A DNA stretch of 64,000 nt from Pectobacterium sp. CFBP8739 (GTDB lineage: Bacteria > Pseudomonadota > Gammaproteobacteria > Enterobacterales > Enterobacteriaceae). Under the pieces are notes generated by a model. That model searched no databases, was not told the DNA's origin, and worked only from the letters and a program-made list of their open reading frames with translations. Below, in pieces: positions 44,716 through 46,407 of this stretch (position 1 is its first letter; each line of letters starts with the position of its first letter). The position numbers and the translations under genes were made by a program. Location of the stretch: assembly GCF_013449375.1 (NCBI RefSeq), contig NZ_JACDRR010000009.1, positions 62,001-126,000 on the forward strand, in the 5' to 3' direction.

Positions 44716-46407
44716 TTATCTATGTACGCCTTCACGACCTAATCGGGCAATTAATTCCACCACGATAGGGTGCTTCAGGAACGCCATAATCTCTTCCGCG
44801 CGTCGCTCCCCAATACCAGAGAACTGTCGCCACTGTTGCGCTGTCCATTGCTGTAACGCCAGCCACCCCACATTATCCAATGCGCTACTGGCGGAACGAG
44901 GCACAGGAATACCCAGCGCAAGCAGCCAACGAGATAATGGCATCTGCCGTGCAGACTGTAAGCTTGTATAAATATCTCGCGCTCGCTTATCGCCCATACC
45001 ATTGACTGCATTAAGCTGTGCCTCCGTCAGAAACAACCATGACAGCACATCTTCCAGTAAATCATGCTGTATCAAGCGCAGCCACATCCCTTCACGCACT
45101 CCCGCCAGATTTAAACCATGTTCTCCACTCAACCAGACTAAGCGCGCCAGAAATTGCTGCTGACAAACCACGCTATACCGAAAACAGCTAAGAGCATGGA
45201 AATCATGTTCATTGGGGGAAGCGATGGCAGGCCGCTCAGTGCCACGCCATACCACACTATCCAAACGTGGAATCCCCTGCCCTGCCAGACTGACGCTCAC
45301 TCGATCGCCGGGCAACACGTCCCACTGTTTCCAACGAGACAGCGAACCGACATTCACCCGACTGACCGATTTGTCGTCCAGTTGCAGAGGATTAAGTTTT
45401 AACACCACAGCGATCTTACCCGTCCGCCCGACAGAAAACGCCACATCAGTGACTTCCGCAACCTGATGAACAGGCGGATATTTCCATGCGACCGCCCAGT
45501 CAGCTGAGGTATTACGCCAATAGCGCCCCAGCGGCTCTTTAGTCTGGCGGATAACGACGCCATCCGTCACGAAGGGCAACGGGTTGTGGTACCAGTCATG
45601 ACGCCATTTTTCCGCGTCAGCGAATGACCCAATCGCATGGGTATAGTCCGCCGTCATGGCAAACCCCATTTCCTTCAATTTCTCCAGACGTTCGGGCATC
45701 GTCATTGGGCCATCCGGCCACTCCCAGACAAACAGCCCCATCTGCGACAACACGGGAGAGGGTTGATGACGACGCATCTCACCGGCCACGACCGAGCGGG
45801 CATTCACTCCACCCTGAATACGTTGCCGATGATCGGTCATCTTCAGAAAAAGCTCCCCTTGTAGTACCAATGAGGAAGGCGCATCGGCCAATAAATGCGG
45901 GATTCCCGGAATCAGACGAACTTTTTCCGTCCAGTCTTCACCTTGCAGGCCGTTACCCCGGCTAACCGCAGATACAAGCCTGCCGCGCTGATAGACCAGC
46001 GTAACGGCCACACCATCAACTTTTGGCTGAATCCATAAATCCTCACGCTGGGCGATCCATTGCATCAACTGTCTACGATCGGACAATTTTTTCAGTCCCG
46101 TATGGGCAACAGGATGAGGCTGCTTGCCATTATCGGGTAACCGGACGGGAATAGGGTTTTGGGGCTGAAAACACCCTAACCACTGGTTTAACTGTTCCCT
46201 AAGCTGATCATAAACGTCATCTTCTATTGGGTTTTTCCCTTCGGTGTAATACACATCATCCCACTGCTCTAACTGATGGTGTAGCGCATCAATTTCTTTG
46301 CTGGCGCGCGTGTTATCCCAATCGGGGCAAACCTGAGCCGCTGCGGCAAAACCGCTGCTCCCACCAACAACAATGATGATCAAAAATGCGCGTATCCTGA
46401 GCCACAT
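44716..46407 (-). CDS. ligB: NAD-dependent DNA ligase LigB
   Basis: About 563 residues (E. coli LigB ~560). The nucleotidyltransferase domain carries the adenylated-lysine motif [16 protein letters not shown] (KxDG) and VAWKYPP; an OB fold and helix-hairpin-helix repeats ([28 protein letters not shown]) follow. The BRCT domain and full zinc finger of LigA are absent, as usual for LigB. The start at 46407 has GGAGGG just upstream; an in-frame ATG at 46422 is less likely. The N-terminus ([16 protein letters not shown]...AAAAQ) looks like a Sec signal peptide, which is odd for a ligase but also present in E. coli LigB. Confidence 0.93.

What the first reader, a model, noticed from the sequence alone, without database searches (positions are those of the whole stretch)
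46320..46407. DNA ligase LigB begins with a signal-peptide-like segment
The first ~24 residues show a basic start (MWLRIR), a hydrophobic core ([10 protein letters not shown]) and an A-x-A-type end (AAAAQ), then VCPDW. The mature part has further Cys residues (e.g. [15 protein letters not shown]). E. coli LigB has a similar N-terminus and Cys positions from memory. An exported NAD-dependent DNA ligase would be unexpected, since NAD and DNA are cytoplasmic.
Basis: partly seen in the sequence, partly recalled or inferred. Interest (0 to 1): 0.5.

Follow-up and report, generated by a model that had tools for sequence, protein, structure and literature searches.

The report
Exported NAD-dependent DNA ligase LigB
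The second DNA ligase of E. coli and its relatives, usually thought of as a DNA-repair enzyme inside the cell, carries a conserved export signal and paired cysteines, so it probably works outside the inner membrane on DNA in the periplasm or biofilm.

Summary
LigB (44716-46407, minus strand) starts with a textbook Sec/signal-peptidase-I signal (residues 1-24), and its only cysteines are C27, C79, C408 and C415. Both features mark the family. By a home-made score, 175 of 187 LigB frames of the window's family pass, against 29 of 29 exported and 1 of 77 cytosolic E. coli controls and 0 of 23 LigA. The signal region is 14.5% identical between pairs, the next 53 residues 47%. Of 185 distinct proteins, 169 have exactly four mature Cys. 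LigB of two further families, and a divergent NAD ligase in three more, have signal-like starts and paired Cys. LigB-type ligases and LigE, the ATP-dependent ligase with a predicted periplasmic leader, were never found in one genome: 136 and 72 of 308, both in 0. I conclude that LigB is an exported, probably disulfide-bonded NAD+ ligase doing LigE's job outside the cytoplasm. Export, disulfides and NAD+ source are unproven; published repair phenotypes speak against it. In the open-access listings and passages I saw, nobody says this; two key papers were not available.

The parts
44716..46407 (-). ligB, NAD-dependent DNA ligase LigB, 563 aa including the signal peptide
   Evidence: NF005987 LigB equivalog 822.8 bits, cut-off 498; Pfam DNA_ligase_aden and DNA_ligase_OB
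46411..46416 (-). GGAGGG, likely ribosome-binding site, three bases before the ATG at 46407
   Evidence: sequence
46336..46407 (-). signal peptide, residues 1-24
   Evidence: score 5.93 against the cut of 4.0; conserved in orthologues
46390..46407 (-). n-region MWLRIR, net +2
46360..46389 (-). h-region [10 protein letters not shown]
   Evidence: helix 2-17 in the model
46336..46344 (-). A-x-A (A22-A23-A24), proposed signal peptidase I site before Q25
   Evidence: by eye from the sequence; an A-x-A-like site lies 0-4 residues before the Cys in 169 of 185 distinct LigB. The script's own best parse cuts three residues earlier, after G19-F20-A21
46327..46329 (-). Cys27 (CPDW motif), proposed partner of Cys79
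   Evidence: invariant in 50 of 50 rows of A3
46171..46173 (-). Cys79, at the end of the second helix of the domain Ia hairpin
   Evidence: invariant in 50 of 50; helices 32-56 and 63-80 in the model
46012..46023 (-). catalytic motif K129-V-D-G, lysine to be adenylated
   Evidence: K129, D131, G132 invariant in A2 (12 rows) and A3 (50 rows)
45184..45186 (-). Cys408, remnant of the LigA zinc finger
   Evidence: invariant in 50 of 50; the CxxC half of the finger is missing
45163..45165 (-). Cys415, remnant of the LigA zinc finger, proposed partner of Cys408
   Evidence: invariant in 50 of 50

Best explanation
LigB is an exported NAD+-dependent DNA ligase. It is made with a cleavable Sec signal peptide and crosses the inner membrane unfolded. 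Signal peptidase I probably cuts it just before the first conserved Cys. In the periplasm it would fold with two disulfides: C27-C79, which staples the two ends of the NAD-binding helical hairpin (domain Ia), and C408-C415, which replaces the zinc finger of LigA. It keeps the LigA catalytic core and seals nicks in DNA that is outside the cytoplasm: biofilm or released DNA, or DNA on its way in. Its NAD+ would come from lysed neighbours, or each molecule may leave the cell already carrying AMP on K129. In its lineages it fills the place that LigE, an ATP-dependent ligase with a predicted periplasmic leader, fills elsewhere. Shown here by sequence: the signal, the Cys pattern, the conserved catalytic residues and the mutual exclusion with LigE in the genomes sampled. 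Inferred: actual export, cleavage, disulfides, substrate, cofactor source and equivalence to LigE.
For: Signal score 5.93, controls; 175 of 187 LigB frames against 0 of 23 LigA. Over 4000 random pairs the signal region is 14.5% identical, the next 53 residues 47.1%, and 143 of 183 proteins have no charged residue at -14 to -5 before the Cys: a property is conserved, not a sequence. Exactly four mature Cys in 169 of 185. Among proteins of other families that passed the score: four in 27 of 27 (f196) and 18 of 20 (f186; the others five and seven), two in 7 of 7 (f2, which lack the zinc-finger region), six in f20. In f13 C79 is lost and a Cys appears in the domain Ia loop (GNPC, GQPC), so the pair is kept. 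The six aligned LigA keep four zinc Cys and a Cys before the active-site lysine; the nine aligned LigB-type rows have neither that Cys nor the CxxC half. LigB type and LigE: 136 and 72 of 308 genomes, both in 0, with swaps inside single genera g506 and g19. ligB (3.6) and endA (2.4) are both raised in delta-cpxR (PMC2731931, section 12 part 1); endA scores as exported (4.79). E. coli delta-ligB makes 1.6-fold less biofilm (PMC5507437 section 23), and ligE loss impairs gonococcal biofilm (PMC10799422 passages; PMC12221376 abstract). Purified LigB has under 1% of LigA activity (PMC5507437 introduction); removing the leader raised LigE activity (PMC6144786 and PMC4220977 passages).
Against: No localisation, cleavage or disulfide has been measured, and my score is home-made, not SignalP. 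Delta-ligB of E. [quoted passage not shown] Overexpressed LigB blocks DNA replication (abstract). I know of no free NAD+ supply in the periplasm (recall; not searched). LigE's own location is predicted only; its tagged form could not be detected (PMC10799422). 12 of 187 frames and 3 of 3 f13 proteins score below the cut, 12 of 185 proteins have five Cys, and 100 of 308 genomes have neither ligase, so the job is dispensable. No common gene neighbour was recognised by eye outside the window's family. Upstream of ligB only CpxR-box-like sites with two mismatches were found, and the cpxR effect is a rise on deletion, possibly indirect.
Confidence: 0.85

Rival explanations
1. LigB is a cytoplasmic backup repair ligase, as published, and the hydrophobic N-terminus is an ordinary feature of the fold or a chance look-alike.
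For: [quoted passage not shown]
Against: The segment is not part of the ligase fold: LigA lacks it (0 of 23) and it precedes domain Ia. Its hydrophobicity is kept while its sequence is not. A-x-A-like end and paired Cys come together with it in six families, f13 just under the score cut. No leaderless start keeps domain Ia whole. LigA is essential although LigB is present (PMC5507437 abstract).
Confidence: 0.08
2. LigB is exported but stays tethered to the inner membrane by an uncleaved signal anchor, facing the periplasm.
For: The hydrophobic core alone could anchor; the model shows one helix, residues 2-17. My score does not separate signals from all membrane helices: 5 of 24 polytopic controls pass.
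Against: An A-x-A-like site lies 0-4 residues before the Cys in 169 of 185.
Confidence: 0.1
3. LigB is dual-localised: inefficient export leaves a working cytoplasmic pool that explains the repair phenotypes.
For: It would reconcile the repair phenotypes with the signal peptide.
Against: The strong h-region (mean hydropathy 3.79 over eight residues) suggests efficient export. A cytoplasmic pool would lack the disulfides.
Confidence: 0.12
4. LigB is exported but no longer mainly a DNA ligase; it uses NAD+ for another periplasmic AMP transfer.
For: Under 1% of LigA activity in vitro (PMC5507437 introduction).
Against: K, D and G of KxDG are invariant in 12 and 50 aligned proteins, the OB domain is found in each of the four proteins tested, and purified LigB does ligate.
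Confidence: 0.04

Closest known systems
LigB (NF005987, PRK08097), NAD-dependent DNA ligase B
   Same: The window protein is a member by score and catalytic residues; it lies head-to-head with gmk as in E. coli K-12 (gene names in the window by that comparison and recall).
   Different: The open-access LigB study treats it as an intracellular repair enzyme; the terms signal, periplasm and secret occur 0 times in its text.
[quoted passage not shown]
   Same: Nick-sealing nucleotidyltransferase plus OB core, N-terminal signal, a disulfide in the gonococcal structure (PMC10799422 figure legend), biofilm effect when deleted, no conserved gene neighbours (PMC12221376 passage).
   Different: ATP instead of NAD+, open frames of 199-348 aa, a different OB family (PF14743). 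LigB is not a member; it appears to do the same job.
LigA, the replicative NAD-dependent ligase
   Same: Same fold and cofactor class; the top structural matches of the model are LigA entries (9a6z, 4glx, 2owo).
   Different: No signal (0 of 23), four-Cys zinc finger where LigB has two of the four, longer C-terminus.
Unnamed NAD ligases of families f2, f13, f20
   Same: Signal-like N-terminus, paired Cys, KxDG core, no complete zinc finger.
   Different: The three scanned score below every LigA and LigB cut-off of NCBIfam; a 100/99 group of their own in the tree; the f2 type ends after the OB domain.

Membership tests
LigB equivalog (NF005987) | Score above the curated cut-off of 498 bits | tested here: met
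   822.8 bits
LigB equivalog (NF005987) | NAD ligase core (adenylation and OB domains, KxDG lysine), no zinc CxxC half | tested here: met
Sec / signal peptidase I substrate | Basic n-region, uncharged hydrophobic h-region, small residues at -3 and -1 | tested here: met
   by a home-made score
Sec / signal peptidase I substrate | Observed cleavage and periplasmic location | not testable with these tools
   no experiment on LigB seen in the listings and passages
Tat substrate | Twin arginine in the n-region | tested here: not met
   MWLRIR in the window, MKVWM in E. coli, by eye; other orthologues not scanned for it
Lipoprotein (signal peptidase II) | Lipobox ending at the Cys | tested here: not met
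   AQVC in the window; a lipobox-like triplet before the Cys in 11 of 185
Disulfide-bonded periplasmic protein | Even, invariant Cys, none spare | tested here: met
   exactly four in 169 of 185, five in 12 of 185; f196 27 of 27 four, f186 18 of 20 four, f2 7 of 7 two
Disulfide-bonded periplasmic protein | Bonds formed in the cell | not testable with these tools
   the model was returned without coordinates, so Cys distances could not be measured
LigE (ATP-dependent periplasmic ligase) | PF14743 OB domain, ATP-type ligase | tested here: not met
   the window's genome has no PF14743 match; the window protein matches NAD ligase families
LigE (ATP-dependent periplasmic ligase) | Same niche: never both in one genome (a test of function, not of membership) | tested here: met
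   0 of 308 genomes with both

The most novel reading that the evidence does not exclude
Gammaproteobacteria keep at most one exported DNA ligase, and it comes in interchangeable kinds: ATP-type LigE, NAD-type LigB, and a second NAD type (families f2, f13, f20) that may have gained export separately. DNA ligation outside the cytoplasm would then be a general function of the Gram-negative envelope, and E. coli LigB its representative in the best-studied bacterium.
Probability: 0.6. Interest if true: 0.82.

Novelty: new variant of a known kind. Interest (0 to 1): 0.7.

Why it matters
LigB has stood since 2001 as E. coli's puzzling second ligase: weakly active in vitro, dispensable, and present although LigA remains essential. 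If it is exported, it cannot reach the chromosome, which would explain why it does not back up LigA; and if it was assayed with its leader and without its disulfides (I could not see the 2001 paper), its weak activity may have the same cause. It would move a DNA-repair gene to the envelope, give the E. coli field a tractable model for the LigE question (what does a ligase do outside the cell, and where does its cofactor come from?), and call for a second look at published ligB phenotypes, including the biofilm effect.

Tried and rejected
Guilt by association: I read by eye the N-termini of frames around nine LigB-type loci outside the window's family (the ligase itself was recognised in eight) and four LigE loci (recognised in three) and saw no common partner; the frames were not annotated. 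CpxR box upstream of ligB: only sites with two mismatches, no chance control run. Lipoprotein or Tat signal: rejected for the window protein. Leaderless start: rejected. The class-wide search found LigB type in 5 of 369 genomes at E 1e-90, one of them a weak 308-bit hit; only three candidates per genome were scored, so it was not used for counts. The first LigA control held one wrong row, L017, a LigB-like protein; it was removed. One search crashed part way and was replaced. The tree gives three firm groups (LigA, LigB, second NAD type) but no root, so one or two origins of export cannot be told apart. The hypergeometric values ignore relatedness and are not used as evidence. Names of the unnamed families were not guessed. 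Paper searches with many hits were seen only as listings: 20 of 386, 20 of 95, 15 of 39, 15 of 47, 12 of 1,322; the stricter listed all 5 of its papers, of which I looked into four and did not open PMC10140301.

Full report
What is there. The gene at 44716-46407 (minus strand) is ligB: 822.8 bits to the NCBIfam LigB equivalog, cut-off 498, with NAD-ligase adenylation and OB domains. It lies head-to-head with gmk, as in E. coli K-12. The nearest named relative is Pectobacterium carotovorum LigB, 93% identical, so the window is probably from that genus (inference). The start is the ATG at 46407, three bases after GGAGGG. Residues 1-24 read [24 protein letters not shown]; the mature part would begin QVCPDW.

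Is it more than chance? SignalP was not available. I wrote a small score (basic or neutral n-region, 8-15 uncharged hydrophobic residues, small residues at -3 and -1) and calibrated it on 130 E. coli K-12 proteins from four 50-kb stretches. The labels are mine, from gene names and products. At a cut of 4.0 it passes 20 of 20 exported proteins (one of them, yjbF, annotated as a lipoprotein), 9 of 9 lipoproteins, 1 of 77 cytosolic proteins and 5 of 24 polytopic membrane proteins. The window scores 5.93 and E. coli LigB 5.27.

Orthologues. LigB passes its curated cut-off in 130 of 246 genomes of the window's family; many of the others are small genomes. From I had 211 LigB frames. Three were dropped for lack of a usable start (L108, L144 and the broken L196) and identical proteins were merged, giving 185 distinct; with one start chosen by codon and ribosome-binding site, 170 of 185 reach 4.0. 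Allowing any start in the right range, 175 of 187 frames reach it, against 0 of 23 LigA treated the same way. Of the 12 below the cut, most score 3.3-3.99 and by eye still show a short hydrophobic stretch and an A-x-A-like end; L186 and L205 look like mis-parsed starts. Over 4000 random pairs the signal region is 14.5% identical and the first 53 mature residues 47.1%; net n-region charge is +1 or more in 169 of 183 and 0 in 14. That is how signal peptides evolve. In E. coli the 123 nt coding for the start are matched in 5371 of 5426 genomes.

Cysteines. C27, C79, C408 and C415 are invariant in 50 of 50 aligned LigB proteins. In 169 of 185 distinct proteins they are the only Cys after the signal; 12 have five, 3 have six, and one, with a mis-called start, has eight. 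Aligned to six LigA, C408 and C415 are the second pair of the four-Cys zinc finger, whose first CxxC half is gone; the loss of half the zinc cysteines is already in print (PMC5507437 introduction). C27 and C79 have no LigA counterpart. In the predicted model (mean pLDDT 87.6, pTM 0.69) they sit just before helix 32-56 and at the end of helix 63-80, the open end of the domain Ia hairpin, where a disulfide would be natural. I could not measure distances.

Beyond the family. With an alignment of 12 LigB-type proteins (A2), LigB type was found in 38 of 59 genomes of family f186 and 78 of 101 of f196; one example of each passes the LigB equivalog cut-off (764 and 675 bits). Of the loci fetched, which are mostly the best-scoring ones, 20 of 20 and 27 of 31 pass the signal score; in f196 three score 2.4-2.7 from the start chosen and one lies in a frame without the motif. 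Three more families (f2, f13, f20) hold a divergent second NAD ligase; the three examples scanned score under every NCBIfam ligase cut-off. Of these, 7 of 9 (f2; the two misses were not scored because the motif was not found in the frame) and 1 of 1 (f20) pass, and 0 of 3 (f13), at 3.88-3.99, with an evident hydrophobic core and A-x-A-like end. Their Cys follow the same logic: two in f2, whose proteins end after the OB domain, six in f20, and a moved second Cys in f13. LigB of f186 and f196 groups with the window's LigB (100/100); the second NAD type is a separate group.

Exclusion with LigE. LigE is the known ATP-dependent ligase with a predicted periplasmic leader (PMC6144786, PMC10799422, PMC4220977; passages). 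Six of eight LigE loci looked at pass my signal score; one contig was cut and one start was ambiguous. PF14743, taken as LigE, and LigB-type ligases were sought in the same genomes. Order sample: 62 and 20 of 148. f186: 4 and 38 of 59. f196: 6 and 78 of 101. No genome has both, in 308; 100 have neither. Relatedness explains part of this, but LigE and LigB type replace each other within four families: within genus g19 of f13 (three LigB type, one LigE; repeated), in f20 (g26 against g39 and g52), within genus g506 of f186 (one LigB, four LigE), and in f196 (LigE only in g484). Limits: the LigB cut-offs (1e-95 or 1e-100) would miss fragments, the LigE carriers of f186 and of f196 are one genus each, and none of the 14 control genomes rang for PF14743, so the search has no named positive control.

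Published data read again. In delta-cpxR E. coli, ligB is raised 3.6-fold and endA 2.4-fold (PMC2731931, section 12 part 1); endA, which I recall as the periplasmic DNase, scores as exported. CpxR governs envelope stress; the effect is repression and may be indirect. PMC5507437 (abstract, introduction, results part 1, biofilm section, discussion) reports 1.6-fold less biofilm without ligB, raised ligB expression in biofilms (citing others), under 1% of LigA activity for purified LigB, and a growth lag on overexpression even by the inactive K124A form. The last fits jamming of the export machinery as well as DNA binding (my inference). The same paper's peroxide, mitomycin and mutation-rate results argue for a genome role and remain the best case against export. 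A screen of group II intron retrohoming saw no loss without ligB (PMC3636086 passages).

Is it in print? I searched open-access full texts for LigB with periplasm, signal peptide, dsbA, endA and periplasmic proteome, and for LigE with NAD-dependent ligase. In the listings and the passages opened I saw no paper saying that LigB is exported or that it alternates with LigE. Several searches had far more hits than were listed, the 2001 LigB paper and the 2016 LigE phylogeny are not held, and database annotations such as UniProt were not seen. Someone may have noticed.

Verdict. The finding holds and is stronger than its author could know. My confidence that LigB is exported is about 0.9; that it does LigE's job, about 0.7.

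Noticed in passing
L236-L238, L313-L321 (family f2): NAD-dependent ligases of about 410 aa that end right after the OB domain, with no zinc finger and no helix-hairpin-helix part: a naturally minimal NAD+ ligase, signal score passed in 7 of 9 loci.
   Followed up: partly
L017/L310, L311, L312/L241 (family f13): The second N-terminal Cys is in the loop of the domain Ia hairpin instead of after it, keeping the pair.
   Followed up: partly
L196, L177, L178 and genomes G349, G302, G171: ligB matches with internal stops or cut short in several enterobacterial genomes, so the gene can apparently be lost.
   Followed up: no
window 42781-44460 (-): The next gene downstream of ligB on the same strand is a kdo2-lipid A phosphoethanolamine transferase (1037 bits), an envelope enzyme; in E. 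coli K-12 the neighbour there is yicG.
   Followed up: partly
L323:1-600: A frame beside a LigE gene in family f186 matches the Pfam peroxidase family.
   Followed up: no
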